Under the pieces are notes generated by a model. That model searched no databases. It had not been told where the DNA came from and saw only the letters and a list, made by a program, of their open reading frames with translations. From Bacteroidia bacterium (lineage in GTDB: Bacteria; Bacteroidota; Bacteroidia; Bacteroidales; UBA932), in contig SABC01000009.1 in NCBI GenBank assembly GCA_009929175.1, forward strand, positions 1 to 56,623: a DNA stretch of 56,623 nt. Reading direction: 5' to 3'. The number at the start of each line of letters is the position of its first letter. Position 1 is the stretch's first letter. Below, piece by piece: positions 1 to 14,852 of the stretch. The translations under genes and the position numbers were made by a program.

Positions 1-170
1 ACCGGTGCCTTTATGACATCGGGATATTTGAATATTGCCGACAAAAAGACCAGCAAAACCACGATGCCGAGCATAACGAAGCTGCCCGACCTTACCATCC
101 AGGAAGGGGTCTTGGTGAGGATATCGTTCACTTCATCGGTCCTCACTTCGAATTTACGCTCCTTAGACAT
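1..170 (-). CDS. HlyD-family secretion adaptor, N-terminus only (partial)
   Basis: Reading leftward from an ATG at 168-170, the frame stays open to the window edge for 56 codons. The protein starts MSKERKFEVRTDEVNDIL, followed by a hydrophobic segment (about residues 27-44) ending in IFKYPDVIKAP. A short cytoplasmic tail followed by one membrane anchor is how membrane-fusion proteins of peptidase-containing ABC exporters begin. Its start overlaps the exporter's stop codon by 8 bases, so the two are translationally linked. I infer that it forms the periplasmic bridge of a type I secretion system for the GG-leader peptide encoded at 2482-2628. The rest lies outside the window, so the lipoyl and barrel domains cannot be checked. 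Confidence 0.75.
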   Translation of the reverse strand, partial: MSKERKFEVRTDEVNDILTKTPSWMVRSGSFVMLGIVVLLVFLSAIFKYPDVIKAP

Positions 171-2355
171 ACAATTGGTTTTTTACCAGTTCGTAATAAA
201 TATTCGCATTGGCCACCAGCTCTTTGTGCGTACCCTGCTCTGCAATCATCCCCTTGTCGAGCACAATTATATTATCTGCATTCTTGACGGTACTAAGGCG
301 GTGCGCAACAACAACAACAGTTTTGCCTTTGAAAAATTGATCGAGGTTTTTCATTATGTCCCTCTCGTTCTTCGCATCAAGAGCATTGGTGGCTTCGTCA
401 AATATTATCAATTGGGGGTCTTTGTAGACCGCCCTTGCTATTAGTATCCTCTGTTTTTGTCCTTGGCTAAGTCCAAGGCCCTCCTGCCCTATCTTGGTGT
501 TGTAGGCCATCGGCAGTGTCTCGACGAACTCCTTGATCTTTGCAATTTCAACGGAATAGAGCAACCTCTCCATATCTATATCCTGGACTCCGGGTGCTAT
601 GTTCCTTGCAATTGTGTCCGAAAATATGAACCCGTCCTGCATCACGACACCGCAGTTTGCCCTCCAAGCCCTCATGCTGAGTGAGTTTAATGAGATCTCG
701 CCGTATTTGATTTCGCCTTCGACAGGTTTGTAAAAACCAAGTAACAGTTTTATCAGGGTAGTTTTCCCGCTCCCGCTCATACCGACTATTGCCGTAACCT
801 TCCCGGGCTGAATTACCATGCTTACCTTTTTTACTACCAATGGAGATCCGGCTCCTTCGTAACGGAAAGAGAGCTCTTCCAGCGTCAAAGGTTTGGATGG
901 CGGGATATCGTGGACAAGCTGCTTTCCCGGTTTCTCCTCCTCCTCTTTTTCATGTACTTCGGAGAGCCTCTCAAGGCTTATACGGGCATCCTGGGCTGTG
1001 CGGATAAAGCCAACGACATTTGCCAGCGGAGAATTCAGCTGTCCTATTATATACTGTACGGAGAGCATCATACCTAGTGTTAGTTCTCCGTTGATGACCG
1101 ATCCTGCAGCCAACAGGGTAATGAATATGTTCTTAATCTGGTTTATAAGGGTTGCTCCGGCTTCCTGGTATTGACCTAGTGCAAGTGACTTTATGTTAAG
1201 TTTGAAAAGCTTTGCCTGTATATGTTCCCACTCCCATCTTTTTTGATCTTCGCAGCCACTCAGCTTAATCTCTTGCATACCGGTAATAAGCTGTATAACC
1301 GAACTTTGATTAGCTGCATTTTGTGTGAAACTACGATTATCCAGCTCTCTCCTTTTTTTCATGAAAAGCAACACCCAAAGGATATACAAAGCAGAGGCGG
1401 TAAAGAATACGGTAAAGATCAACAGATTGTAGTAAAGCAATACAGCTCCGAAAATCAGGATATTGACAGTGGAAAAGAGAACCGCAAGTGACGATCCGGT
1501 CAAAAAACCCTGTATACGTTTGTGGTCGCCGATCCTTTGCAAAAGGTCTCCTGTCATGCGGCTGTCGAAAAATCCAACCGGCAGTTTCATCAACTTACTC
1601 AGGAAATCCGAAATCAGCGAGATATTTATCCTGGTGCCAAGATGCAGTAAGATCCAGCCTCTTATAAAATCGACAGTGGAACTGCTAATCGATAACATCA
1701 ATTGCGCAACCAAAACCAGCCATATAAACTTGATATCGGCAGTACCGATACCTATGTCCACTACACTCTGGGTTAGGAAAGGAAAAATCAACTGTATCAC
1801 ACTCCCGGCAACCAGACCTGCCCCCAACTGTATAGCAAGTTTTTTATGTGGTTTGAGGTATGAGTATAAAAACTTGAACCCCTTGAAATCGGTTGAATCA
1901 CCGACAGCTTCGTAAAACTTGTGGGTAGGTTCCAAAAAGAGTGCTATACCTCGTCCTTCGCCACCCGACACTGTACTGAACCACGATTTGCAAAACTCCC
2001 CCACCCCAAGGGTAACCTTACCGGTGGCCGGGTCTGCAATATATAACTTTGTACCGGCCCCTTTTCCCTTTACACGGTAGAGTACCACAAAATGGTTTTG
2101 GTTCCAGTGCACTATTGCAGGGAGTGTGGCTTTGCAAAGCTCATCAAACGAGAGTCTGGCCCCCAGCGTCCGCAGCCCTATACTTTCGGCAGCTTTGCTG
2201 ATCCCGAGTAAATTTACACCCAACCTTCCCTTCTCGCACCTCTCCCGGAGATTCTCCATGCTGTAGTGCCTGCCATAATGCATTGCAACCATACGCAGCG
2301 CAGCCGGCCCACAGTCCGTGGCATCTATCTGGGCATAATATTTAAAGTTTTTCAA
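163..2355 (-). CDS. Peptidase-containing ABC exporter (C39 leader peptidase, membrane and ATPase domains)
   Basis: This 730-residue protein cleaves double-glycine leaders and exports the mature peptide across the inner membrane. The C39 domain (about 1-140) has Gln9, Cys15 in TDCGPAA, His88 in NHFVVLY and Asp108 in ADPATG, so the whole catalytic set is present. The transmembrane domain spans about 165-450. The ATPase domain (about 490-725) has Walker A GMSGSGKTT, signature LSQGQKQR and Walker B LIIFDEATNALDA. The start is a TTG at 2353-2355, because a TAA lies directly upstream and the peptidase domain begins at once. A -7 box (2391-2398) and phased GCTCA repeats lie upstream. It is cotranscribed with the HlyD adaptor at 1-170. 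The family is certain; the substrate is inferred from the neighbouring peptide gene. Confidence 0.95.
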   Translation of the reverse strand: MKNFKYYAQIDATDCGPAALRMVAMHYGRHYSMENLRERCEKGRLGVNLLGISKAAESIGLRTLGARLSFDELCKATLPAIVHWNQNHFVVLYRVKGKGAGTKLYIADPATGKVTLGVGEFCKSWFSTVSGGEGRGIALFLEPTHKFYEAVGDSTDFKGFKFLYSYLKPHKKLAIQLGAGLVAGSVIQLIFPFLTQSVVDIGIGTADIKFIWLVLVAQLMLSISSSTVDFIRGWILLHLGTRINISLISDFLSKLMKLPVGFFDSRMTGDLLQRIGDHKRIQGFLTGSSLAVLFSTVNILIFGAVLLYYNLLIFTVFFTASALYILWVLLFMKKRRELDNRSFTQNAANQSSVIQLITGMQEIKLSGCEDQKRWEWEHIQAKLFKLNIKSLALGQYQEAGATLINQIKNIFITLLAAGSVINGELTLGMMLSVQYIIGQLNSPLANVVGFIRTAQDARISLERLSEVHEKEEEEKPGKQLVHDIPPSKPLTLEELSFRYEGAGSPLVVKKVSMVIQPGKVTAIVGMSGSGKTTLIKLLLGFYKPVEGEIKYGEISLNSLSMRAWRANCGVVMQDGFIFSDTIARNIAPGVQDIDMERLLYSVEIAKIKEFVETLPMAYNTKIGQEGLGLSQGQKQRILIARAVYKDPQLIIFDEATNALDAKNERDIMKNLDQFFKGKTVVVVAHRLSTVKNADNIIVLDKGMIAEQGTHKELVANANIYYELVKNQLYV

Positions 2356-2390: not shown

Positions 2391-2422
2391 CAAACATAAT
2401 AAAAAATTATGTTCAAAACAAT
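2391..2422 (-). promoter_or_regulatory. Predicted promoter of the C39 exporter operon
   Basis: On the minus strand the Bacteroidota -7 consensus TAnnTTTG is matched exactly by TATGTTTG (2391-2398). An ATTG (2419-2422) lies 20 bases further upstream, in place of the -33 TTTG. The expected start of transcription is near 2387, giving a leader of about 32 bases to the TTG start. Phased GCTCA repeats lie directly upstream, where an activator would bind. Confidence 0.55.
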
Positions 2423-2427
2423 ACATG

Positions 2428-2456
2428 AAGCTCATTTTGAGCTTTTTATGAGCTTT
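2428..2456 (-). promoter_or_regulatory. Phased GCTCA repeats with an inverted copy, upstream of the exporter promoter
   Basis: On the minus strand AGCTCA occurs at 2449-2454 and again at 2438-2443, exactly 11 bases apart. A third copy in the opposite sense (2429-2434) makes a perfect 7-3-7 inverted repeat, 2428-2444. Direct repeats spaced by one helical turn are the usual binding site of OmpR/PhoB-family regulators, and such a regulator is encoded at 4095-4766. The position just upstream of the -33 region suits activation. The inverted repeat could instead be a hairpin after the peptide gene, but no T-run follows it. Confidence 0.5.
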
Positions 2457-2481: not shown

Positions 2482-2628
2482 TCAGGGTTGGGGATTCTCA
2501 GGAACCTCCTCTTCCTTCACTATGATGTACCAAACATTTCCATATTTGTCAGTAATCTCTAATACTCTGTCACCGCCTACTACATTGACCATCTCTTGAT
2601 CGTTCAGTTTTTCAAATGTTGTTTCCAT
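2482..2628 (-). CDS. Small double-glycine-leader secreted peptide precursor
   Basis: This 48-residue reading frame has an ATG at 2626-2628 and a TGA at 2482-2484. Its leader METTFEKLNDQEMVNVVGG matches the GG-leader consensus by position: Leu at -12, Glu at -8, Met at -7, Val at -4, Gly at -2 and -1. Cleavage after Gly19 would release a 29-residue core, starting DRVLEITDKYGNVWYIIV and ending with an acidic, proline-rich tail. The core has no Cys and little Ser or Thr, unlike lanthipeptides or pediocin-like bacteriocins, and may form a beta-hairpin around DKYGN. The gene lies 126 bases upstream of the C39 exporter, on the same strand. Role unknown: bacteriocin, pheromone or effector are all open. 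Confidence 0.85.
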   Translation of the reverse strand: METTFEKLNDQEMVNVVGGDRVLEITDKYGNVWYIIVKEEEVPENPQP

Positions 2629-2696
2629 GGCTCTAAAATTAATTGTTGTTAATTGTTGTTGTTGTTTTGCACTACAAATAAATTAAGAATAATTCG

Positions 2697-2704
2697 TAGA
2701 TTTG
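2697..2704 (+). promoter_or_regulatory. Predicted -7 box of the histidine kinase/regulator operon
   Basis: TAGATTTG matches TAnnTTTG exactly. No TTTG is found at the usual 19-21 base distance upstream; the nearest is at 2666-2669, 27 bases away. Without a -33 element this promoter may need an activator. Transcription would begin near 2710, about 34 bases before the ATG at 2744. Confidence 0.45.
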
Positions 2705-2713
2705 CACATGAAA

Positions 2714-2750
2714 TGCTCATAGAATGCTCATGATTTGCTCAAAATGCTCA
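2714..2750 (+). repeat. Four TGCTCA direct repeats at the start of the sensor kinase gene
   Basis: TGCTCA is found at 2714-2719, 2725-2730, 2736-2741 and 2745-2750. The first three are exactly 11 bases apart and the last 9. They share the GCTCA core with the repeats at 2428-2456. They lie between the predicted transcription start and the ATG (the last overlaps it), so binding here could repress the kinase operon. They also lie upstream of the divergent peptide gene, where binding could activate it. The function is inferred from spacing and context only. Confidence 0.5.
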
Positions 2751-4126
2751 ACCGCGCACTAACACTCACCGGAATCGCCATCCTCTTCCTTTTGGGCCTG
2801 CAGGCAGTATGGCTCTTTAGACTCATTGAAGATGAGAAGAATAGGTTTTCTGACGAAATCCAGAAAACCCTTGAGGAATCTATGAGGAAAGAGCTGGACT
2901 GGAGGCTCAGGAACATAAATAAAGGAAAAAATTTTAGTCTTGTTATTGCAAATAAATCAGCTGAACAGGATTATTCCTCCTCCAAGGATCTTGTAAAGGT
3001 GAATATTAAGGAGAATCACGAGCTTTTGACCAAAGTTTCTTTGGAGGAGGCACTACAGGAAATCTATAAAAAAGATTACCCGCTCAACCTGGACACCTTT
3101 GCCCTATACTTCACGCAAGCCCTCGACGAGCTTGGAAAACCGGCCTCATTCATCCTTGACTATGTCTCTCCCGACACGCTTGTCTCCTATAACTCCCCCG
3201 GGAGCCAAAAAGGGCTATTCCTTTTGAAACCCTCCTTCACAACCGAACTTCCCATAACAGTATCCAAAGACCTTGTGATCAAAGCTGAGGTTTTTTACCC
3301 CAAATCGGTTTTCAAAGGAGACCTTTTGGTGATTTTGCTGCTCTCCCTGGCGTTGACAATTTTTATCCTTGTAGCCATTGTCGTACAAACCAGGATGCTG
3401 TATAAACAAGTCTCCCTGGCAAAGGTAAAAGAGAATATTACCCATTTCCTCACTCATGAGTTGCGCTCTCCACTCCAATCTTCAATAACTAACCTGGAGG
3501 TTGGGGAGATGGCAGATGCACAAAACTCCGGTTATTTCCTTTCCAAAGCCAAGGAGCAACTCTATTTCCTCAACTCATTGATAGAAAACATTTTAAATAT
3601 CAACAAATTCGAGAAAAGGCAAGCCCCTTTGAGCATGGCTTACTTTGAAACAGAAGAGGCAATTGAGCCCCATTTGGTAAGGCACAATATCAACAACACA
3701 AAAAAAGTTACAATTACATCCAGCTGCGACCCCTCCTGTTCTCGTTTTTTTGGAGACAAACTACATATAACCAATGCTATCGGCAATTTAATTGACAATG
3801 CGGTCAAATATTCAGGGGATGATGTGGCAATAGATGTCACGGTGAAACCTGCCGGGAAATTTACAGCAATAAGTGTGAAAGACAATGGAATCGGAATTCC
3901 CAAAGAGGAACAATACAAAGTTTTTGAAAAATTCTACAGGATAGGAAAACAGGAACACGCCCAAAAAGGAAAAGGTTTTGGTTTGGGACTGACCTACGTT
4001 CAATGGGTAACCAAGGCACACAGGGGAAAAGTAGAGCTGATCAGCGAAGCCGGGGTTGGAAGTGAATTTATTCTCTATTTAAAAAACAGTGATCATGGCA
4101 CAAAAGATTTTACTGGCAGACGATGA
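2744..4126 (+). CDS. Membrane sensor histidine kinase
   Basis: This is a 460-residue kinase counted from ATG 2744; an in-frame TTG at 2735 would add three residues. It has one membrane segment at about 5-25, an extracytoplasmic sensor region of about 165 residues with no recognised domain, and a second membrane segment at about 190-218. The HisKA box carries His238 in THELRSPLQ. The ATPase domain shows the N box NAIGNLIDNAVKYS, G1 DNGIGIP and G2 GKGFGLGLTY. Its 3' end overlaps the regulator gene by 32 bases. It is divergent from the GG-peptide and exporter genes, so it may sense the peptide or the stress linked to its export; that link is inference. Confidence 0.9.
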   Translation: MLNRALTLTGIAILFLLGLQAVWLFRLIEDEKNRFSDEIQKTLEESMRKELDWRLRNINKGKNFSLVIANKSAEQDYSSSKDLVKVNIKENHELLTKVSLEEALQEIYKKDYPLNLDTFALYFTQALDELGKPASFILDYVSPDTLVSYNSPGSQKGLFLLKPSFTTELPITVSKDLVIKAEVFYPKSVFKGDLLVILLLSLALTIFILVAIVVQTRMLYKQVSLAKVKENITHFLTHELRSPLQSSITNLEVGEMADAQNSGYFLSKAKEQLYFLNSLIENILNINKFEKRQAPLSMAYFETEEAIEPHLVRHNINNTKKVTITSSCDPSCSRFFGDKLHITNAIGNLIDNAVKYSGDDVAIDVTVKPAGKFTAISVKDNGIGIPKEEQYKVFEKFYRIGKQEHAQKGKGFGLGLTYVQWVTKAHRGKVELISEAGVGSEFILYLKNSDHGTKDFTGRR

Positions 4127-4766
4127 GGTAAATTTCGGCTATGCAATGTCCGAATTTTTGAAAATGAGTGGTTATGATGTCACTTTTGTCAACGACGGGA
4201 AGAGTGCATACGAAAAATACCAGCAGATCCGCCCCGACCTGATGTTGTTTGACGTCAACATGCCCGAAATCGACGGATTTGAGCTGGCAGGTATAATAAG
4301 GGCTACAGACAAAAACACACCCATAATCTTTATCACCTCCATCAGTGATGACAGCAGTGTGGCCAACGGTTTCGAAATCGGATGCAATGACTACCTCAAA
4401 AAACCGTTCGGGCTCAAGGAACTCCAGATAAGGGTCCAAAAGTCCCTGCTTATTTCATCCAAAAACTGCGATATCTATACACTTGGCAACCTCACTTACT
4501 CTCCCGAGGTAAGGACTCTCTACAAACAGGATGGCTCATCGGTGAGCCTTTCCGAGATGGAAAACAAACTCCTGGAAATGTTGTGCCGCAACTTCAACCA
4601 AACCTGCAAGAACACCGATATAGCCCCAAATGTGTGGGGAGACAAAGATGTAGATCCCAAACGGTCTATTGAAACCCTTACATCAAACCTGCGCCGCAAA
4701 TTAACCGACACAAACCTTGTGATCGAGAGTGTAAGGGGTGTCGGCTACAGGCTTCGCAAAGGTTAA
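4095..4766 (+). CDS. OmpR-family response regulator
   Basis: This is a 223-residue regulator counted from ATG 4095; an upstream in-frame GTG at 4089 is less likely. The receiver domain (about 1-115) has the acidic pocket DDE near residue 10, phospho-acceptor Asp53 in LFDVNMPEIDG, and the Lys of LKKPFG. The C-terminal winged helix (about 130-220) has SEMENKLLEML and ends VRGVGYRLRKG, typical of OmpR/PhoB proteins. Such proteins bind direct repeats 10-11 bases apart, which are seen at 2438-2454 and 2714-2741. It overlaps the kinase gene and is surely its partner. It ends 35 bases from the convergent RND gene. Confidence 0.93.
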   Translation: MAQKILLADDEVNFGYAMSEFLKMSGYDVTFVNDGKSAYEKYQQIRPDLMLFDVNMPEIDGFELAGIIRATDKNTPIIFITSISDDSSVANGFEIGCNDYLKKPFGLKELQIRVQKSLLISSKNCDIYTLGNLTYSPEVRTLYKQDGSSVSLSEMENKLLEMLCRNFNQTCKNTDIAPNVWGDKDVDPKRSIETLTSNLRRKLTDTNLVIESVRGVGYRLRKG

Positions 4767-4801: not shown

Positions 4802-7800
4802 TTACCTACCCGACAACACCGGCAAGAAAAGCACAATACCGGCAAGGGAAAACAACAACCCACCCATGGTTCCTACAGCAAACGAGAACCAGAATACCTC
4901 ATTCACACCATCGGTCAGGAACGGGATAAGTCCCAATACAGTGGAAATAATTGTAAGCAGTATGGGAATAATCTTGTGGTTGTAGGCCTTTATATAGAGC
5001 TTTTCAATATTTTGGGAAAGTTTACGCTCGGCATTAAACAGATTGAACTGGTTGAGCAGGTATATTCCGGCATTTACAGATATCCCGCTCAACATTATCA
5101 GGGCTGCAAAACCTCCCTGGTCAAACCGGAATCCGGAAATGGAAAAGGTGAGGAACAAACCGATAAACGAGAAGGGAATCAAAAGGATGATGGATAATGG
5201 CTGAGTAAGTGATTCAAACAATATTGCACATATGAAATAGATCACCGCTATCACTATCAAAAGCAAAAGCACTCCCTGTTTTGCCGGCATATCCCAACCC
5301 CACCTCTGCTGACCTGCTTTGAAACCTACAGGCAGAACCTCATTGTTGAGCCTATCCACCTCACGTTCCATCACTCTTCGGGAAAGCTCGAAAGAACCAA
5401 TGAAATCATATGCGACACTCAGTATATATTGCTGGTTCCTCTTGTATATGTCATTCCCGCTCTTTCTCATATCGATCTTCCCCAACTCCGAAAATTTCAC
5501 CTTTCTGGCACCAATGTCCAAATATTCGTTTTTGAGGTTCCAGATGTCAAAAGTGTGTTTTTCGTCGGAAACAACCTCTGTTTGTATATACTCCTGTTCA
5601 TCCAGCTTAACCGAGGCACCCCCCGAAGAGGATAATTTGCGGTTAAGTGCCCCGTAAACATCCCCGGGGTTGATGTTGAGTTGGGCCATCCTTTCCTTGT
5701 CAAAGTCTATGAAATACTCGTTACGGCCTCCGCCTCTGCCCCAACCCATCGATCCAGTAACATAGGGTTCCTTTACCCTCTGGTTTTGGAGCAAGGCTTC
5801 GGCAGAATTGAGCCCATAGCCGTAGAGCAGGTCATAATTGTAGCCGGTGAGTTCTATCCGGTTGCTTCCTCCGCCCATTGACCCGACGTTGTTGTTGAAG
5901 TATTGGTCGTCAATCCCGGAAACCCTCCAGTTTGCACCCCCGAAATCGATAGCTTTGGAAATCACCTCACTTTTCAACATAAGCGGGAATCCGGTGTTCT
6001 CAACCTCTTTCAGGAACTTAACCCTGATGGAGGCATTGCTGTAGGAGTAGATGTTTGTGTAAAACATCTCTATTTGAGGGAATTGGGAGAGATAGTTCTC
6101 CATGAATTTCACAATCTCGTTCAATTGTGCAATAGTACAACCATCCGGCATGGAGGCATGGATACCAAGTTCGGGTCGGGCAGGATCGCGGTAAAATCCC
6201 CCCCCTAACCCGGCCTTCTTTTGGAAAAGCCTCAAAGAGCCTCCCAGCACCGGCTCTGCATACTTTTTTATCTTGTTCTGGTACAGGTTGCTTCCTATTG
6301 TTTTGTTGTATATCCTTTGGAACCGGTTTTCCTCTTTTTGGTATTTGGAAGGCAATGTATGCAAGGGCAATCCAAACCCCAAAACCACCAGTACTACAAA
6401 CACCCATCGATGCCGGCGTCCAAAAAGGATGTATTGCTCGTAGATATTATTGAATTTAACTATATTACGCGCTCTTTTACGGCTTCTGGAACTGCTTACG
6501 CTGTTAATCGGGAACTCGTCAATAAGGGCAGGTATCAGAATTAATGCTATAACCATGGAGACCGCAAGGTTGACAATAATCACAGCGGCAAATTCCATTA
6601 GCATGTTTTTTTCCTGCTCAGGCATCATGAAAACCACGGTAAGAGCTCCGATTGTAGTCATCAAAGCTGCAAGTATTGCAATGAAGGCCTTCCTGTCCTT
6701 GTAATACCCATAATGGGATATCATGATTATGGATGTATCTATGATTATCCCAAGGGAAACAGTAATCCCTGCCAGGGAATATATATGTATCTCCAGATCA
6801 AAAAGATAGTAAAAGATAAAAGCAATGAAGATATTTGCCAGTAAAGTAACGGCAATAATTGCCAGATACCTGAGGCTGCGACTCACTACATAAACGAATG
6901 CCAGCAAAATGAGCAGGGACAAGATTGTCCTGCGCAATATCTTGTTTATTTCGCTTTTGATTTCGGTTGACTGGTCCTCAACAATGAAAGCGGCAAAATC
7001 GGCGGGGAAACGCTTCGAAAGCAGCTCCATCCTGGCCTTCACCTCTTTGACCAGTTCCAGGTTGTTCACACCCTTTTCGGGTATTATATACAGGTTGATG
7101 GTATTGAGTCCGTTTATCCTGCTGTAACTCCTGGGCAGCTCCTCCTTAACCTCTACCGAAGCAACATCCCCAAGCCTTATAATCCTGCCATCCACGTTTT
7201 TTACAGGTATTGTCTCCAGGTCCAGTGTCCCGGCGTTGCTCCTTACAACAATAGCATTACCATCCTTGTTGCCCAGTATTGTCTCCTTGCCGTTGTTGGC
7301 ATTGATTGCAGCCGAGATATCCTGGGCTGAGATTCCAAGGTTACCGACATACTCGGTATTGTATCTGACTTCGTAAACATATGAGGTAAACCCGCTGAGC
7401 TCAGCACTCCGGAGTCCGGGCACCAGTGACAACTCCTTGACAATGTTGTCTTCGGTATACTCCTTGATCTTAAGGGAAGAGAGTGTTGAGTTGATGGTGT
7501 AGACCAAAACAGGCTTCTCACTCTCCTGGGTATACCCCCCTCTGCCCGAAGAGACTGAAGGGAAAGAGACTCCCTGCGGTAACCGGGGATAAATACGCCT
7601 GAGCACCGAGGAGAGTTCGAACCTTGCGGCATCTATATCGGTACCCTGTTTGAAGGAGACATTAATAACGCCGGTGTTTTTGGAGGAGGTAGAAGAGATC
7701 TCCTTTACCCCTTTGAGCGTCGAGACAACCCCCTCCAGTTTTGAGGTAACCTCAGATTCAATTACCCTTGCAGAGGCCCCGCTCCAGGTAAAGGAGACCG

Positions 7801-7918
7801 ACAGGTTGTATCCCTTTTCGGAAGGCTGGTACTGCAAACTCAGCAGGGGGGCAATACCGGCACCTGCAACAACCAGCACCACAAAAATCAATATTACGGA
7901 AAAGGAGGGTAATCTCAT
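4802..7918 (-). CDS. RND efflux transporter, second of a tandem pair
   Basis: This inner-membrane drug/proton antiporter-like protein has 1038 residues from ATG 7916-7918, whose ATGA overlaps the stop of the upstream RND gene; an ATG at 7930 would add four residues. It has the RND plan of two halves, each with one membrane helix, a large periplasmic region and five to six further helices. It is divergent from AcrB. In helix 4, GIIIDTSIIMI keeps one Asp where AcrB has Asp407 and has Thr in place of Asp408. In helix 10, GISVNAGI has Asn in place of Lys940. It may form a heteromeric pump with the gene at 7915-10941, as MdtB and MdtC do. Substrate unknown. Confidence 0.88.
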   Translation of the reverse strand: MRLPSFSVILIFVVLVVAGAGIAPLLSLQYQPSEKGYNLSVSFTWSGASARVIESEVTSKLEGVVSTLKGVKEISSTSSKNTGVINVSFKQGTDIDAARFELSSVLRRIYPRLPQGVSFPSVSSGRGGYTQESEKPVLVYTINSTLSSLKIKEYTEDNIVKELSLVPGLRSAELSGFTSYVYEVRYNTEYVGNLGISAQDISAAINANNGKETILGNKDGNAIVVRSNAGTLDLETIPVKNVDGRIIRLGDVASVEVKEELPRSYSRINGLNTINLYIIPEKGVNNLELVKEVKARMELLSKRFPADFAAFIVEDQSTEIKSEINKILRRTILSLLILLAFVYVVSRSLRYLAIIAVTLLANIFIAFIFYYLFDLEIHIYSLAGITVSLGIIIDTSIIMISHYGYYKDRKAFIAILAALMTTIGALTVVFMMPEQEKNMLMEFAAVIIVNLAVSMVIALILIPALIDEFPINSVSSSRSRKRARNIVKFNNIYEQYILFGRRHRWVFVVLVVLGFGLPLHTLPSKYQKEENRFQRIYNKTIGSNLYQNKIKKYAEPVLGGSLRLFQKKAGLGGGFYRDPARPELGIHASMPDGCTIAQLNEIVKFMENYLSQFPQIEMFYTNIYSYSNASIRVKFLKEVENTGFPLMLKSEVISKAIDFGGANWRVSGIDDQYFNNNVGSMGGGSNRIELTGYNYDLLYGYGLNSAEALLQNQRVKEPYVTGSMGWGRGGGRNEYFIDFDKERMAQLNINPGDVYGALNRKLSSSGGASVKLDEQEYIQTEVVSDEKHTFDIWNLKNEYLDIGARKVKFSELGKIDMRKSGNDIYKRNQQYILSVAYDFIGSFELSRRVMEREVDRLNNEVLPVGFKAGQQRWGWDMPAKQGVLLLLIVIAVIYFICAILFESLTQPLSIILLIPFSFIGLFLTFSISGFRFDQGGFAALIMLSGISVNAGIYLLNQFNLFNAERKLSQNIEKLYIKAYNHKIIPILLTIISTVLGLIPFLTDGVNEVFWFSFAVGTMGGLLFSLAGIVLFLPVLSGR

Positions 7919-10900
7919 CTCTTGATCCATTTATAAATTGCATAGTAAAAAATGGGAATAAAAAAGATACTCACAATTGTTCCCACAATCATACCTCCAA
8001 TCAGGGCCAACGAAAGCGGATACTGCAGGTCCGACCCCATATCGCCCCTCACCAAAAAAGGAGCTATAGCCAAAATAGTGGTCAAGCTTGTCATGATTAT
8101 CGGTTTGAGTCTCCTTGCCCCGCCCATCAGTATGGACCTTAGCAGAGAGTATCCCTCTTTGCGCAAACGATTGATTGTGTCTACTTTGAGGATCGAGTCG
8201 TTGATTATTATCCCGCACATCACCACTATCCCGATCATGGACATCAGGTTGATTCCCGAACCAAACATCCATAGGAATAAAAAAGCGCCAAAAATATCTA
8301 TGACCACCTCCGAAAGGATTATAACGGGCTGTATTAGTGACTCGAATTGGGCTGCCAGAATAAAAAAGAGAAGCAAGAGGGCCACACTCAGGATAATTAC
8401 AAGTTCCTTTATAAGTTCGAGGTTATCAAAGTAGCTCCCGTCGTAAATCACATCAAAATTACCATTTTCCTTTGCAAGCCTGGAAATTACACCCATTACC
8501 TCATCAATTTTATTCTCGTCCACTACCAAATTTAATGGATAGTAATCGCCCTCCGATCCCGACACCACACTTTTAAAATCCCTTACCCTGCTCTCAGAGA
8601 CAAGGACTCTCAAAGGTATCTCAACGGCATCCCTGTTAACTACAGTAAGTGACTGTATGTCCATGGCCAACTCCCTCTCTTCGCCCAGTTTGACAGGTAT
8701 TGAATAAGTGCCGTGGTTTATTGAAAACAACCGGTTTTCCCTGGCTGCATTCATTACTGAATTATGGATAACGGAATGGTCGACGTTGTAAAGGGAGAGC
8801 ATTTCGGGTTTTGTCACCAGCATTATCTGCTCCTGCCAAAGTACCGGCTCCAGGTAGAGATAGGGCAGCTCTTCCCTTACCATTTCCAGGAAAAGGTTGA
8901 GTTTGTCGGGATCCGGTGGTTTGTTCTCCTTTGACAGGAGCTTGGCAACCAGGTTGTACTCACTGTCCGAAAATATTATGTTGAAGATATTGTCCGACAG
9001 GGAGAATGAAAAAGTAGAAGCAGGGTACCTGTTTTGAATCTCTCGTGACACTATGGACTCTATCTGTTCCAGGTCTCCGGGAGTGTTGGCCTGCATATAC
9101 ACCAGAGCTTCCGAAGCTGTCAGGTCCGGAGTATGTGAAAGAATGTACTGCTGAGAAGCAACGTAGGAGGTCCTGTGAGCTAACAAGTTCGAAACGGACT
9201 TAACCACCTCCTCCACCCTTCTGTCATTCTCTTCGGGTGTGAGAGAAGCATTCCAGTCTATACGTAGTATTGTATCGTCATGGGTTACAGGCGGGAGTTT
9301 GGACTTTTCAATGAATCCATACAGAATGAAAGTGGCAGGTATTACGAGAATCACTACGGCCCATACCAGTTTTTGATGCCGGAACACCCACTTTAGACCA
9401 TTTTCGTACAATCTTTCGTAATCCAAGGGGTGTATCTTTTCCAGATAACGGTTCTTGACAGGTCCGCCGGTTTTCCTGTAAAATAGGTAATAGTATACCG
9501 GAATAACAATTACAGCGACCAGCAATGAGGCAAACAAACCTATCGTAACAGCCATGGCCTGGTCATAAAAAAGAGCTCCTGCTATCCCGCTCAGGAATAT
9601 AAGGGGTACAAACACTGAGCATGTTGTGAGAACCGAGCTTAGCATTGGGGCAAACACCTCGGCAACCCCTTTTATTACAGACTCTCTCAAGTTCTTGCCC
9701 CTCTCCAGCATCTGGGTTATGTTGTCAATGACAATTATGGAGTTGTCCACCATCATACCGATTCCCAGAATCAACCCCGATAAGGATATGATGTTTATGG
9801 AAATCCCGGCCACAAAGAAAAACAGCAAAGAGACTATCAGCGAAAGCGGAATTGTTATTGTAACCAGCATCGGTGATCGGAAATCTCCCATGAACAGGAA
9901 TATGACAAGGCAGGCCAATATGGCCCCTATCAATATATTGTTGCGAAGGTTGGAGATCGAGTAATCCAGTAACTGTGTCTGATCCCTGGTTACCTTGAAT
10001 TTGACAGAGGGGTACTCCTTTTCAAAAAGTTCCACTGACTCCTCTAAAGATCGGCGCAAATCGGCCATACGGGCATCGGATTGTTTGAGTACAGCCATAC
10101 TTACCGCAGGCCGGCCGTCGGAACGCACCATCCCCTTGATTGTAGCGGGCTTTTCTGTGACACTTGCCAGCTCCCCGAATTTGTAGACCCTTCCTCCAAC
10201 GTTGATGTTGATGTTCTCGATGTCTTCCTTTGTCCTGATTTCCGAAATAAACCTTATATCCCACTGGTAGTGTCCATCCTTGATAGATATATTACCCAGG
10301 GTCTGGTTGTTGCTGTTGATTGCCGAAACCAGCATCTGCTCAGTTACCCCGATGGCCCTGTTTTTATCGGAATAAGGGGTAATAAGGAATTCGGGCAACA
10401 ACAAACCACTTACATCTACAAGTGCCACCTCCGGTATCTGTTCGATTCGTTTTGATATCACATCGGAGGCAAAACGGCTCAACTCCATGAATCTCGACAG
10501 GTCATCAGACTCGGTGGTCATGTTTATGAAAAACGAGGGGATATCGGTCGCACTGGCCTTAACCACCTTGGGTCTTTCAATTTCCCTGGGTAAGGAAGAG
10601 GTTGCTTTGTCTATTTTTTCGTTGACATCAATAAAAATATAGTCAATGTCGGCACCGTGTTCAAATTCGAGCCGTATGACACCGGAGTTGTTGCTGGCTT
10701 CGCTGGTCAGGCTTTTAAGAGCCGATAACTGGCGCAACTGGTTTTTAAGCTGTTTGAGAACCGAGTTATCTATCTCCCTTGCCGAGTATCCCGGAGCGTT
10801 AACTTGTACCGTTATCCTGGGGATATCCACCTCCGGCATCAATGAGACCGGTAACATCCCTATGGCAACCATGCCCAAAACCACTACGGCAATAATGGAC

Positions 10901-10941
10901 ATTGTGACGGCAATCGGTCTGTCGATCAGTTTTCCTGTCAT
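7915..10941 (-). CDS. RND efflux transporter, first of a tandem pair
   Basis: This is a 1008-residue inner-membrane pump subunit. The N-terminus LIDRPIAVTMSIIAVVVLG and LPVSLMPEVDIPRI are typical RND landmarks, followed by the periplasmic porter domain and helix 4 GIGMMVDNSIIVIDNI. This keeps the first relay Asp (AcrB Asp407) with Asn in place of Asp408. In helix 10, GIIINDSILKVD has Asn in place of Lys940. It starts 6 bases after the adaptor gene and overlaps the second RND gene by 4 bases, so adaptor and both pumps are translated together. The tandem arrangement and the unlike sequences suggest a mixed trimer. Substrate cannot be read from sequence. Confidence 0.92.
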   Translation of the reverse strand: MTGKLIDRPIAVTMSIIAVVVLGMVAIGMLPVSLMPEVDIPRITVQVNAPGYSAREIDNSVLKQLKNQLRQLSALKSLTSEASNNSGVIRLEFEHGADIDYIFIDVNEKIDKATSSLPREIERPKVVKASATDIPSFFINMTTESDDLSRFMELSRFASDVISKRIEQIPEVALVDVSGLLLPEFLITPYSDKNRAIGVTEQMLVSAINSNNQTLGNISIKDGHYQWDIRFISEIRTKEDIENININVGGRVYKFGELASVTEKPATIKGMVRSDGRPAVSMAVLKQSDARMADLRRSLEESVELFEKEYPSVKFKVTRDQTQLLDYSISNLRNNILIGAILACLVIFLFMGDFRSPMLVTITIPLSLIVSLLFFFVAGISINIISLSGLILGIGMMVDNSIIVIDNITQMLERGKNLRESVIKGVAEVFAPMLSSVLTTCSVFVPLIFLSGIAGALFYDQAMAVTIGLFASLLVAVIVIPVYYYLFYRKTGGPVKNRYLEKIHPLDYERLYENGLKWVFRHQKLVWAVVILVIPATFILYGFIEKSKLPPVTHDDTILRIDWNASLTPEENDRRVEEVVKSVSNLLAHRTSYVASQQYILSHTPDLTASEALVYMQANTPGDLEQIESIVSREIQNRYPASTFSFSLSDNIFNIIFSDSEYNLVAKLLSKENKPPDPDKLNLFLEMVREELPYLYLEPVLWQEQIMLVTKPEMLSLYNVDHSVIHNSVMNAARENRLFSINHGTYSIPVKLGEERELAMDIQSLTVVNRDAVEIPLRVLVSESRVRDFKSVVSGSEGDYYPLNLVVDENKIDEVMGVISRLAKENGNFDVIYDGSYFDNLELIKELVIILSVALLLLFFILAAQFESLIQPVIILSEVVIDIFGAFLFLWMFGSGINLMSMIGIVVMCGIIINDSILKVDTINRLRKEGYSLLRSILMGGARRLKPIIMTSLTTILAIAPFLVRGDMGSDLQYPLSLALIGGMIVGTIVSIFFIPIFYYAIYKWIKR

Positions 10942-10947
10942 AACATG

Positions 10948-12024
10948 CTATTTTTTTACCTCCACGTTGGAGCCGTCGGCAAGGTTTAGGTTACCCGATA
11001 CAATCACCACATCTCCCTCATCCAGCTTTGCATTCTTTTCTTTATTGGCAATCACCGAATGGTATCCGGTATTGGTCATCAAAACCTCTACATAGGTCCA
11101 CATTGCTTTACCCGTGTTAGGGTCAAGCCTGAACAGCACATCAAAGTTATCCCTCATTACCACAGAGCTTTTTGGAACAACCAACTGGTTTTTTACAATG
11201 TTGCGGGCAACCACCTTCACATTCATTCCCTCCATCAGCTTGCCCCTGTTGTTGCTGACTTTGGCCATCACGGTAATCTGCCCCTTTTCGTCTACAACCG
11301 GATTAATCTGAGTAACGTTGCCTTCGTAAAAAACATCGGGTTCACTAAAGGAAGCAACCCTTACCTGGCTGCCTTTGCCAAGGAATGAGAGCTCGGACTC
11401 CAGCAAAGAAAACTCTACTTCAAAGAAAGAATCATCTATCAAAGTGCAAAAAGGTCCCGACGGGCTCTCGTATTCCCTTGCAGAGACATTTGCAACTTTA
11501 CCTCCGAAAGGAGCCCTGAGCGATGCATTTGCCAGCTCTTCGACCGACTTTTTGTAGTCGTGAATCACCTGGTTGTATCCGGACTGAATTTTAATAACCC
11601 TCAGCATATCCGCCGGTACATTTGCTGTATCCCGTCCGTAACCATAACTAATCAGTTTATCTGCAAAATCGAGCTCTGCCTTTTCCCGTCTCTCCTCTGC
11701 CTGCTTCATACGCTGGTAGGCTTCTGAAGTGTCCAATCTTGCTATAACCTGGCCCTCGCCAACATAGTCACCGTTTTTGACAAGTATGGATGCCAGCACA
11801 CCGGTACTCCTGAATGTCAATGAACTCTTACGTAGTGCTCTCAGCTTGCCGTTGGTTACAATTTCCCGGCTAAAATCCATCCTTCGGAGCACCATTGTAT
11901 CAACAAAATTGCTTTCGGCCGAAAATCCGGCCCTGGCTGCCTGTGTTGTGGTCTCTTCCTCTTTTTTGCCAGAACAGGAAAGCATCGAAATTGCAAGGAG
12001 TGCAAGGATTAATTGTTTTGTCAT
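10948..12024 (-). CDS. RND efflux periplasmic adaptor lipoprotein
   Basis: This 358-residue membrane-fusion protein links the inner-membrane pumps to the outer-membrane channel. It starts with a lipoprotein signal (MTKQLILALLAISMLSC, lipidated at Cys17). The lipoyl-like hairpin then appears as LASILVKNGDYVGEGQVIARLD, split by a coiled-coil segment of about 60 residues, with its second half at LRAPFGGKVANVSA. A beta-barrel and membrane-proximal domain follow. It lies 7 bases downstream of the TolC-like gene and 6 bases upstream of the first RND gene, the usual order for a Bacteroidota efflux operon. Confidence 0.92.
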   Translation of the reverse strand: MTKQLILALLAISMLSCSGKKEEETTTQAARAGFSAESNFVDTMVLRRMDFSREIVTNGKLRALRKSSLTFRSTGVLASILVKNGDYVGEGQVIARLDTSEAYQRMKQAEERREKAELDFADKLISYGYGRDTANVPADMLRVIKIQSGYNQVIHDYKKSVEELANASLRAPFGGKVANVSAREYESPSGPFCTLIDDSFFEVEFSLLESELSFLGKGSQVRVASFSEPDVFYEGNVTQINPVVDEKGQITVMAKVSNNRGKLMEGMNVKVVARNIVKNQLVVPKSSVVMRDNFDVLFRLDPNTGKAMWTYVEVLMTNTGYHSVIANKEKNAKLDEGDVVIVSGNLNLADGSNVEVKK

Positions 12025-12031
12025 GATTGGA

Positions 12032-13543
12032 TTAATTTTCTGTTAATAGATCAAAGTTCACATTAACACCCTCGCCTGTAAGGTAATCATAAAGACTCAA
12101 TTTGCGGATGTTGTAATAATTTTTCCAGTAATTGCCCAAATCGGCAATATACCTTGATGCGGCACTGGTCATGTCGTTTTGTGCTGAGTTGAGCTCTATC
12201 ACGGTGATTGTCCCGTTACGGAACCTCTCATTGGCAATGTCAAAGGAGAGCTTTGCTATGGAATCGGCCTGCAATGAGATATTGCACTGGTCGTTTAGTT
12301 TATTGAACTGCATTACCTTTATGAGAACATCCTGTTTGTATTGGGTCATGGATTGCTCTACCTGGGTCCTTATGACCTCTTCCCTGGACCTTGCCAGTTT
12401 GACATTCCCTTTTCCCATTCCCCAGTCAAGTATAGGAAGGGTGAGACTCAGCCCTACCACCTCCTGGTCCATCGGGTTCGAATAGGCCTTGGAGAGGTTC
12501 TCCCCCCTTTGGTTCAAACCAAAATTGGCAAAAAGGTTTGCCTGCAATCCTGTAGAAGATTTTGCCCTCGCCACGGATTGCTCGGCACCAAGCAACAAAA
12601 GTTCGTTTCCCATCACATAAGAGCTGTTCTCGATGGAACGGGAATAGACATCTTCGTAATTCAAGGTTAAATCAGGTGTCTGTTCCGGGGTAATCAATAC
12701 CAATTCCACACTCTCGTTAAAACCAAGGAATGTCCTGAGGTTCAATTTAGACATCTCAAGCTCCAGCTGTTTGTCACCAATATCCAGCCGGGAATTGATC
12801 AGCCTCAGGTTAAGGGTGAGCACATCGTTGCGAGATATGGTGCCAATTTCAAACCTCTCTTTGGCGATATCGAGTGAAAGTTCGGTATTCTCAAGATTTT
12901 TCAAAGCCATGTCGAGGTTGATCTGTGCCGATAAAACTGAGAAAAAAAGAGAGACAGCAGTAATATTGACATCCTCCAACCTCTCCAGGTACTCCCTTTT
13001 GGCTTTCTCAAAGTTCAATGGCTCAATGGTCTTTTCCCACTTCAATGAATTGTATGCCTTTATGGGTTGGCTATAATTGATTTTTACAGGCTGTGAAGTA
13101 TAAGTAACCGGATTTTGTGAAGAAAACTGGTCCAGCCGGCTAAGGCTGGTTATCAGGGAGAGTGTCCCACCCGTCGGGGCTATCGATTGGTTTACCGACA
13201 AAGAGAGGTTGTTGTTCATATTGTTGTTCACGATATAATTGAACTCTCCTGTCTGACTGTTTTGCAGGGCCGTAATAGATCTGTTGTACTGCCCCAGGGA
13301 AGCATTCAGGTTGAGGGATGGGAGTAATTTTGCTTTGTAGGAGCGGAACTGCCAATAGCTTGCCAAAAAGTTATGTTTGGCAATCAGGGATGCCTGGGAC
13401 TGCTCCCTTGCAGTCTCCACCACCTCTTCCAATGTCAATGGAATACGGCGCGTTTGCTGTGACTGGGCAGTAAAAGGGAACAATACCATCATAACCAAGA
13501 GGTTTAGCAACCCCAAGCGGGGTGTTTTCTTGAAACAGTTCAT
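12032..13543 (-). CDS. TolC-family outer-membrane efflux channel
   Basis: This is a 503-residue outer-membrane factor. The signal peptide ends near AQSQQ (about residue 30). Two OEP repeats follow, each with a beta-strand pair and long helices. LTLEEVVETAREQS begins the first helix, and GLSLTLPILDWGMGKGNVKLA is the usual second-repeat motif. It is cotranscribed with the adaptor and pumps (7-base gap) and lies 4 bases after the beta-propeller gene at 13548-14822. It gives the exit duct of the tripartite pump. Confidence 0.92.
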   Translation of the reverse strand: MNCFKKTPRLGLLNLLVMMVLFPFTAQSQQTRRIPLTLEEVVETAREQSQASLIAKHNFLASYWQFRSYKAKLLPSLNLNASLGQYNRSITALQNSQTGEFNYIVNNNMNNNLSLSVNQSIAPTGGTLSLITSLSRLDQFSSQNPVTYTSQPVKINYSQPIKAYNSLKWEKTIEPLNFEKAKREYLERLEDVNITAVSLFFSVLSAQINLDMALKNLENTELSLDIAKERFEIGTISRNDVLTLNLRLINSRLDIGDKQLELEMSKLNLRTFLGFNESVELVLITPEQTPDLTLNYEDVYSRSIENSSYVMGNELLLLGAEQSVARAKSSTGLQANLFANFGLNQRGENLSKAYSNPMDQEVVGLSLTLPILDWGMGKGNVKLARSREEVIRTQVEQSMTQYKQDVLIKVMQFNKLNDQCNISLQADSIAKLSFDIANERFRNGTITVIELNSAQNDMTSAASRYIADLGNYWKNYYNIRKLSLYDYLTGEGVNVNFDLLTEN

Positions 13544-13547
13544 ACTA

Positions 13548-14822
13548 TTATCTTTTTGGTTTTACTATTATGACAACAGGATTATCCTCTTCTTTAAGCA
13601 GTGATGCGAGGCTTTGCAGGCTTCTGCTTGCCTCTCCGGCCTTGCCGGCCGCATCCAGTATCTGGTAAGCATTCTTATAGGAGATAAACTCTCCGCCGGT
13701 ACCTGTATATGAAGGCCAAAAAACGGGACCACCCTCAAGGTCTTCTTTGAATCCGTTCTCTCCCTCTGCAGGTCTTGCAAGTGCCTTTAACTTACCGGTT
13801 CCTTTCTCGGCAATAGCCAGTATATTGGCGTCTACACTCTTGTATTCCATACCATTGATCATGGTTGCAGGCCGTTCTACTTTTTCTGGAGCATATTTAC
13901 CTGCCAAAAAATTGAGCAGCAAATGGTTATTGGTTTCAAAGAAAGGAGTGGCCAATGATATATGGTCTTGCTCGTGGCGGGGTGCAAATGGATCTGAGCC
14001 CTCCTTGATGCCGTAATTTCCGTAATCTATGGCAAAAAATTGTTCAAAACCACCATCTTTGCTGACGTTGAAAACAGTATCCCTGCCAGGGTAATAGAGC
14101 CTGGCATAATCACCAAACCTATTGATATAAAAAGGATCCCAACGTATTGAAATGGCAGAGACCTGCCCACCGCTATGGGTTATCTTCATGGCATTGTGCT
14201 GCTCCCTGACATCACTCATGATAACTCCCAGGGTATCGTCGCAAAAGAAATAGAGGTTTTTTACAGTGGGCTCACTTCCCCTTAGCAACATGGAATATGC
14301 AGTAACCATAATATTGTTGCCGACAAATTCAAACTTATCAAAGGTGACCCTCTCTTCATCTGTTACAATCTTTTTCCTGGAAATGAATTTACCCGACTGG
14401 TCATATTTAAGAAAATCACCTTGCCCGCTCAGGATATACAACTCTCCGGCAGCCGAAGGGGCAAAAGACCTGATTTCGGAGTACTCCTCCGGGCCCCTTC
14501 CTTTACGATTAATTACGTTGATGAACTTTCCTTTGTCGTTAAAAACAAAGATCTTGTCGGTATTATCCCTTACGTAAATCTTACCCGACTGGTAATGTAT
14601 GGAACTGATGTTGGAAACCATCGAACTGTCTGTTGTCTCCAACGGAATGTATGAAATGGATGAGGCTATTTCGCTGAGATTCACTACAGATTGCCCATTC
14701 AGTATCTCATAGGCTTTGACTACAAATTTATCCTGGGATTTGTCACCTGGTGCGTTGCAGCATACCAAACCCATGGATATGCTCAAAACCACCAAAAGCG
14801 TTTGCAAAAACTTCTCTTTCAT
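13548..14822 (-). CDS. 6-bladed beta-propeller lipoprotein (paralogue A)
   Basis: This 424-residue protein carries a lipoprotein signal (lipobox LVCC, Cys22). The body has the NHL-like beta-propeller pattern common in Bacteroidota: VVNLSEIASSISYIPLETT, then repeated blades such as GKIYVRDNTDKIFVFNDKG and the GRGPEEY loop. It is not an enzyme by any visible motif. It is homologous to the gene just upstream (14853-16181), with the same opening block and the same C-terminal ending, DNPVVIIV here and DNPVAVIV there. It lies 4 bases before the TolC-like gene, so it is probably part of the efflux operon. It may bind a ligand or protein at the membrane; function unknown. Confidence 0.82.
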   Translation of the reverse strand: MKEKFLQTLLVVLSISMGLVCCNAPGDKSQDKFVVKAYEILNGQSVVNLSEIASSISYIPLETTDSSMVSNISSIHYQSGKIYVRDNTDKIFVFNDKGKFINVINRKGRGPEEYSEIRSFAPSAAGELYILSGQGDFLKYDQSGKFISRKKIVTDEERVTFDKFEFVGNNIMVTAYSMLLRGSEPTVKNLYFFCDDTLGVIMSDVREQHNAMKITHSGGQVSAISIRWDPFYINRFGDYARLYYPGRDTVFNVSKDGGFEQFFAIDYGNYGIKEGSDPFAPRHEQDHISLATPFFETNNHLLLNFLAGKYAPEKVERPATMINGMEYKSVDANILAIAEKGTGKLKALARPAEGENGFKEDLEGGPVFWPSYTGTGGEFISYKNAYQILDAAGKAGEASRSLQSLASLLKEEDNPVVIIVKPKR

Positions 14823-14852
14823 AAGGTAAATATATAAAAATTAATTGTATGA

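What the first reader, a model, noticed from the sequence alone, without database searches (positions are those of the whole stretch)
2482..2628. Unlisted 48-residue GG-leader peptide next to a C39 exporter
Sequence: a complete small frame whose leader matches the double-glycine consensus at -12, -8, -7, -4, -2 and -1. Knowledge: C39 ABC exporters cleave exactly such leaders. Inference: this is the native cargo. The 29-residue acidic core, with no Cys and few Ser/Thr, does not look like a lanthipeptide, pediocin-like or microcin core, so its activity may be new.
Basis: partly seen in the sequence, partly recalled or inferred. Interest (0 to 1): 0.85.

Follow-up and report, generated by a model that had tools for sequence, protein, structure and literature searches.

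The report
Exported hairpin peptide with sensor kinase
An uncultured lineage of Bacteroidales bacteria carries a real, conserved gene for a tiny exported peptide wired together with its own exporter and a sensor-kinase switch, which makes it a good candidate for a self-made peptide signal, though no activity has been shown.

Summary
The peptide lies just upstream of the exporter in 23 of 25 genomes of the genus; of the other two, one has no exporter hit and one is cut by a contig end there. It evolves under purifying selection (pooled dN/dS 0.23; leader 0.06). The core is Cys-free, acidic, a predicted beta-hairpin. Their shared intergenic region holds repeats at 11-bp spacing whose letters change between clades together with the regulator's DNA-reading helix; a second site of the same form precedes the exporter in 9 of 16 loci. 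The core covaries with the kinase's periplasmic domain. The peptide was not found in other genera among 199 family genomes, nor the sensor domain among 295 order genomes. Best reading: a peptide/exporter/kinase/regulator circuit, most likely an autoinducing signal (0.45); secreted effector or bacteriocin are rivals. New variant of a known kind.

The parts
2482..2628 (-). 48-residue precursor: 19-residue double-glycine leader plus 29-residue acidic core, predicted beta-hairpin
   Evidence: frame; orthologues; dN/dS; AlphaFold2 strands 21-26 and 32-37, block pLDDT 87 and 82, whole model only 66.7
163..2355 (-). C39-peptidase ABC exporter (730 aa), likely processes and exports the peptide
   Evidence: Pfam Peptidase_C39, ABC_membrane, ABC_tran; matches of 61-82% identity in 22 other genus genomes
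3..170 (-). start of HlyD-type adaptor, cut by the contig end; the rest appears to be on contig C112 of the same genome
   Evidence: homologous stretch 2.2 kb after the exporter start in relatives; L191; HlyD_3 hit for the L112 homologue
2744..4126 (+). histidine kinase (460 aa) with a periplasmic domain of about 165 residues between two membrane helices (helices by reading)
   Evidence: HATPase_c above cut-off, HisKA 23.4 against 26.9; divergent homologues beside the peptide; sensor half not found outside the genus in 295 order genomes
4095..4766 (+). OmpR-family response regulator
   Evidence: Response_reg plus Trans_reg_C
2703..2742 (.). four direct repeats at 11-bp spacing (three TGAGCA, one TGTGCA), putative response-regulator site between HK and peptide
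2675..2682 (-). TTTATTTG, one mismatch to the Bacteroidota -7 element TAnnTTTG (consensus recalled), upstream of the peptide
   Evidence: ATTTG(T/C) upstream of the peptide in the 20 loci printed
2427..2453 (.). second putative regulator site in reverse orientation (half-site pair TGAGC n6 TGAGC at 2438-2453) between peptide and exporter
   Evidence: 2 mismatches to the triple pattern; half-site pairs of the same general form in 9 of 16 loci against 0.04 expected
2391..2398 (-). TATGTTTG, exact match to the recalled -7 element, 43 bp upstream of the exporter start

Best explanation
The locus is a self-contained peptide circuit. The 48-residue precursor is cut after Gly-Gly by the C39 domain of the adjacent exporter and leaves the cytoplasm as a 29-residue acidic beta-hairpin, helped by a HlyD adaptor (inferred from family knowledge). 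The divergent OmpR-type response regulator binds the 11-bp-spaced repeats in the shared intergenic region and drives the peptide, and in close relatives also the exporter through a second site; the kinase in the inner membrane controls the regulator (site and pairing supported by comparison, binding not shown). The kinase's periplasmic domain most likely senses the peptide itself, so that the system autoinduces: a ComC/ComAB/ComDE-like layout built from other parts in a diderm (inferred). Steps: real gene and C39 cargo about 0.95; control by the adjacent kinase/regulator about 0.9; peptide as ligand of the kinase about 0.45, which is the confidence given.
For: Peptide in 23 of 25 genus genomes: 20 loci, G020 and G024, G014 cut at a contig end. 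Divergent HK in 22 of 22 of these with that side visible, RR in 21 of 21 (L116's is beyond the contig end). dN/dS over 10 near loci 0.226 whole, 0.056 leader, 0.249 core; core dS near saturation. Mean identity at lag 11 in the 48 bp next to HK 0.62 over 20 loci, 0.287 in shuffles, maximum of 500 shuffled sets 0.327; other lags 5-17 give 0.18-0.32. Repeat letters go with the RR recognition helix (helix place recalled): TLTSN/ATTSN with TGAGC (window, L112), ALASH with TCAG(C/T) (11 loci), ALVLN with ATAGGT (L131), VLVHK/VLVYK/VLLHK with TAAG(G/T) (L130, L135, L136). Half-site pair before the exporter in 9 of 16 near-plus-mid loci, 0.04 expected. Peptide core covaries with the HK sensor given exporter and kinase domain: partial r 0.41 (19 loci; L116 dropped, kinase incomplete) and 0.47 (15 loci), 0 of 2000 permutations each. 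Sensor identity to the window 26-55%, kinase domain 44-74%.
Against: No ligand binding, cleavage or activity is shown. Covariation could reflect shared ancestry: the permutation test does not model the tree, rows are related (L113 and L114 peptides are identical), and the core is short. Fast sensor domains are common in kinases (recalled). The kinase would see the periplasm whereas a C39/HlyD system with an outer-membrane channel would release the peptide outside; how it would return is open. L120 (TCAGC, then TGAGC twice, helix TLASH) does not fit the helix/letter rule cleanly, and L117-L119 have TATGC as third repeat. 7 of 16 near-plus-mid loci and all 4 deep or L131 loci lack the second site. 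In 6 of the 9 the pair is TCAGC plus TAAGC, not two identical half-sites. The own-genome second target (GLPGLI gene) shows no repeats in five relatives (by eye). The sensor model is weak (pLDDT 69.7) and has no PDB match at E 0.001.
Confidence: 0.45

Rival explanations
1. Secreted effector with a structural or biofilm/envelope role, like cyanobacterial EbfG peptides: the kinase senses something else (envelope state, metal) and switches the peptide on.
For: Acidic hairpin core under purifying selection; EbfG1-4 are GG peptides whose secretion needs a C39 transporter and which enable biofilm (PMC4997328, passages); in 10 of the 13 loci listed HYC_CC_PP-like, TonB-receptor and HMA genes follow HlyD (families from L112).
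Against: Kinase sensor and peptide core covary beyond exporter and kinase domain; the metal-type genes are not adjacent in the deep loci L130, L135, L136.
Confidence: 0.27
2. Bacteriocin (microcin-like) whose production is regulated by a two-component system.
For: GG leader and C39 export are a usual bacteriocin route, also in Bacteroidales (PMC6671954, passages); core more variable than leader.
Against: No small immunity-like gene constantly beside the peptide was noticed (not searched systematically); the 111-142 aa protein after HlyD occurs in only some loci; one copy in the own genome; acidic core without Cys; core under purifying, not diversifying, selection on the whole.
Confidence: 0.2
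3. Ribosomal metal-binding peptide taken up again with a metal through the downstream TonB receptor.
For: TonB receptor with plug domain and HMA protein follow HlyD in the own genome and in near and mid relatives; acidic tail.
Against: No Cys or His in the window core; module detached in the deep clade, which keeps peptide, exporter, HK and RR; binding not tested.
Confidence: 0.06
4. Chance or non-coding frame.
For: Short frame, no family hit at cut-off.
Against: Conservation, dN/dS, ATG start and GG kept in 20 loci (GS in L131).
Confidence: 0.02

Closest known systems
Streptococcal ComC/ComAB/ComDE pheromone circuit (recalled; review PMC8895600, passages)
   Same: GG-leader peptide, C39 exporter, accessory protein, histidine kinase and response regulator encoded together
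   Different: Regulator is OmpR family, not LytTR; kinase has a periplasmic domain, not a polytopic sensor; host is a diderm; peptide is an acidic hairpin; genes are divergent; sensing not shown
Bacteroidetocins (PMC6671954, passages)
   Same: Bacteroidales, small GG-leader peptide beside a C39-type ABC transporter
   Different: Those have at least two Cys, a TM protein gene and mostly a thiol oxidoreductase; no Cys here and neither gene noticed; the terms two-component and histidine kinase do not occur in that paper's text
Bacteroidales PCAT/GG RiPP clusters, TIGR04149 type (PMC10352776, abstract and passages)
   Same: GG precursors next to C39 exporters; of the nine clusters analysed there one (BGC5) is said to have a kinase/regulator pair, but that one has no C39 transporter
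   Different: No modifying enzyme noticed beside the peptide, no Cys in the core; TIGR04149 score 13.4 against cut-off 25
EbfG1-4/PteB of Synechococcus elongatus (PMC4997328, passages)
   Same: GG peptides of a diderm whose secretion needs a C39 transporter, with a biofilm role
   Different: Other sequences; the term two-component does not occur in that paper's text

Membership tests
Double-glycine-leader peptides exported by C39 transporters | Leader with hydrophobic -12, -7, -4, acidic -8, GG/GA/GS at -2/-1 | tested here: met
Double-glycine-leader peptides exported by C39 transporters | Neighbouring ABC exporter with C39 peptidase domain and HlyD adaptor | tested here: met
Double-glycine-leader peptides exported by C39 transporters | Cleavage after GG and release | not testable with these tools
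   needs mass spectrometry or a C39 assay
Com-type autoinducing peptide circuit | Peptide, C39 exporter, kinase and regulator kept together | tested here: met
   HK in 22 of 22 and RR in 21 of 21 peptide loci with that side visible
Com-type autoinducing peptide circuit | LytTR regulator and polytopic kinase (features recalled) | tested here: not met
   Trans_reg_C regulator; kinase with two membrane helices by reading
Com-type autoinducing peptide circuit | Regulator binds the peptide promoter | tested here: inconclusive
   11-bp repeats and helix covariation fit, binding not shown
Com-type autoinducing peptide circuit | Mature peptide activates the kinase | not testable with these tools
   covariation only
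Bacteroidetocins | At least two Cys in the mature peptide | tested here: not met
   no Cys in the 19 mature cores aligned (two leaders carry one Cys)
Bacteroidetocins | TM protein and, mostly, thiol oxidoreductase genes beside the peptide | tested here: inconclusive
   not among the neighbours read; no dedicated search
TIGR04149 rSAM-modified RiPP / TIGR01847 bacteriocin | Score at or above curated cut-off | tested here: not met
   13.4 against 25, 13.2 against 15.7
Class IIa bacteriocins | YGNGVxC motif | tested here: not met
   window has KYGNVW without Cys; that Tyr occurs only in the window and L112 of the 19 aligned

The most novel reading that the evidence does not exclude
A Bacteroidota peptide pheromone system: a ribosomal, unmodified beta-hairpin peptide exported by a C39 transporter and sensed by the periplasmic domain of a co-encoded kinase whose OmpR-type regulator switches on peptide, exporter and, in the window species, an outer-membrane-type GLPGLI/barrel pair. 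Sensor and peptide diverge together, giving species-specific signals within one genus.
Probability: 0.38. Interest if true: 0.85.

Novelty: new variant of a known kind. Interest (0 to 1): 0.6.

Why it matters
Peptide autoinducers read by histidine kinases are described as the Gram-positive way, with small molecules in Gram-negatives (PMC8895600, passages). A compact peptide/exporter/kinase/regulator unit in Bacteroidales, with a predicted binding site and a defined 29-residue ligand candidate, makes peptide signalling in this phylum directly testable with a synthetic peptide and a reporter. In the listings I saw no such system described for Bacteroidota; that covers only a held open-access library, and only the passages named here were read.

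Tried and rejected
Metallophore idea: considered because TonB-receptor and HMA genes follow HlyD; demoted because the deep clade keeps the circuit without them nearby. GLPGLI/barrel pair as a conserved regulon member: an exact four-repeat site precedes it in the window genome, but five relatives' homologues (L169-L173, 43-45% identity) show no repeats in the 170 bp printed upstream (by eye), so it is not claimed as conserved. Statement that distant (about 60%) exporters lack GG peptides: rejected as made with too strict a motif; one search finds Cys-bearing or other GG frames in some, and L052 and L071 carry GG frames that the motif missed. Outside the genus the fetched exporter loci show no hit to this peptide; an HK hit at 24% occurs in L080 and RR hits at 29% in L072, L074, L078, L111, that is, other two-component genes. 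HK sensor fold: Foldseek against PDB gave nothing at E 0.001. A hit in G003 (L128, 52% over core residues 25-45) lies in a frame without the leader; not counted. Rows dropped: L130, L131, L135, L136 from the dN/dS pools and from the 16-locus count of second sites (where they have none); L116 from the covariation test. No family trees were built.

Full report
What is there. The reported frame exists as described. It is followed on the same strand, 126 bp on, by a 730-residue ABC exporter with an N-terminal C39 peptidase domain and by the start of a HlyD-type adaptor that runs off the contig. A small contig of the same genome (C112, L191) begins inside an adaptor whose first 32 residues are identical to the window fragment's last 32, and continues with a 142-residue protein, an HYC_CC_PP-like protein, a TonB-type receptor and an HMA-domain protein (families judged on the L112 homologues; HYC_CC_PP below its cut-off, 20.4 against 28). 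On the other strand, back to back with the peptide, lie a histidine kinase and an OmpR-type response regulator. Contigs of the same length and content as some genus members carry record titles such as Bacteroidales bacterium and Rikenellaceae bacterium, hence the order named here.

Chance and selection. A strict GG-leader frame is found once in the window and 0.05 times on average in 60 simulations. The window peptide has matches at E up to 1 in 37 of 99 genomes (own included); 16 other same-genus genomes have E below 1e-7. Matches in other genera are weak (best E 0.002), mostly in long unrelated frames, and were not followed up. With a 19-row profile, 19 of 199 family genomes match at E 0.01, all in one genus of 25 sampled. 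Putting together, 23 of the 25 genus genomes hold the peptide just upstream of the exporter. G014's copy is cut by a contig end; G020's and G024's were read. The two others are G003, without an exporter hit, and G022, whose exporter is cut by a contig end. One search lists an exporter match at E 1e-60 in 24 of 25 genomes; in 23 of them (own included) the best match is at the orthologue level (61% or more), while for G020 the large match is a distant homologue and only the first 28 codons of its true neighbour are seen at a contig end. Nei-Gojobori counts pooled over the pairs of 10 near loci give dN/dS 0.226 (leader 0.056, core 0.249), and 0.158 over 6 mid loci; core synonymous change is near saturation (beyond it in the mid loci), and pairs are not independent. 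Four divergent loci were left out of these pools.

Constant partners. In 20 of 20 loci that carry the peptide and enough upstream sequence, plus G020 and G024, the HK is divergent from the peptide; the RR follows in 21 of 21, L116's being beyond the contig end. Exporter homologues without these kinases (in the genus L132, L133, L137, L138; outside it for example L040) show no such peptide within 1 kb upstream by motif. The kinase's sensor half was searched in 295 genomes of the order: only the own genome and one same-genus genome matched at E 1e-6.

Regulatory sites. The HK/peptide intergenic region carries three to four repeats at 11 bp, the spacing typical of OmpR-family sites (recalled). 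The letters differ by clade and go with the RR recognition helix (helix place recalled): this is the strongest sign that the encoded RR is the one that binds. L115 (TGAG(C/T)-type, helix ALTVY at a contig end) shares the Thr of the window and L112; L120 is mixed; L117-L119 have a divergent third repeat; L116's RR is not available. A second site of the same general form in reverse orientation lies between peptide and exporter in 9 of 16 near-plus-mid loci: TGAGC twice in the window, L112 and L115, TCAGC plus TAAGC in six others. The window also has TATGTTTG 43 bp before the exporter. In the own genome the triple repeat occurs without mismatch at two places: here and upstream of a GLPGLI gene (TIGR01200, 149 bits against 50) followed by an 805-residue barrel-like protein with only sub-cut-off Pfam hits. 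Only two other RR homologues at E 1e-15 were found in the own genome (26 and 31% identity). GLPGLI genes also appear among genes changed in regulator mutants of Riemerella and Porphyromonas (PMC9603813, PMC8757827, passages), so this link is plausible but may be general.

The peptide. Across 19 aligned sequences M1, E12, M13, G18, D27 and G30 are invariant. AlphaFold2 on 8 sequences gives a short leader helix and two strands around the D..GN turn (blocks 87 and 82 pLDDT, overall 66.7); the C-terminal acidic tail varies in length and sequence.

Signal or effector. Over 19 loci the peptide-core distance follows the HK-sensor distance (r 0.84) better than the kinase domain (0.80) or the exporter (0.74); partial correlation 0.41, and 0.47 in the 15 near-plus-mid loci, 0 of 2000 permutations each. 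This favours ligand and receptor but does not prove it, because the test ignores the tree. The periplasmic place of the sensor and the unknown outer-membrane exit leave the route of sensing open.

Against known systems. It works like a Com-type circuit in layout but fails two of its family features (regulator and kinase type), so I do not file it there. By leader and exporter it belongs to the broad class of GG-leader, C39-exported peptides, with cleavage untested. It is not a bacteroidetocin (no Cys), class IIa bacteriocin or TIGR04149 RiPP by the tests above.

Verdict. Observation confirmed; cargo inference supported; function best read as an autoinducing signal with modest confidence.

Noticed in passing
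window 4802-13543: Two RND-type pumps, an adaptor and an outer-membrane factor in a row (named by reading), convergent with the HK/RR genes; pump homologues lie beside the locus in near relatives and L131 but were not found in the fetched flanks of mid or deep loci.
   Followed up: partly
L166 5840-6664 and 3249-5666 (own genome contig C177): GLPGLI gene and barrel-like gene downstream of a repeat site with the same letters as the peptide promoter.
   Followed up: partly
L132 (G024), 3.6 kb upstream of a C39 exporter: A GLPGLI-type gene and an 889-residue outer-membrane-type protein (by reading) sit directly upstream of another C39 exporter, hinting that such pairs belong to GG-peptide systems more widely.
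   Followed up: no
L137 (G001), about 9000-15883: Another exporter locus with two radical-SAM-like genes and a LanC-like gene (by reading) and TAAGG repeats at 11 bp: possibly a further regulated peptide cluster in the genus.
   Followed up: no
L052 at -1434 and L071 at -1546 and -3447 relative to the exporter: Bacteroides and Dysgonomonas exporters about 60% identical carry other GG-leader frames beside secreted-looking proteins of about 400 residues.
   Followed up: no
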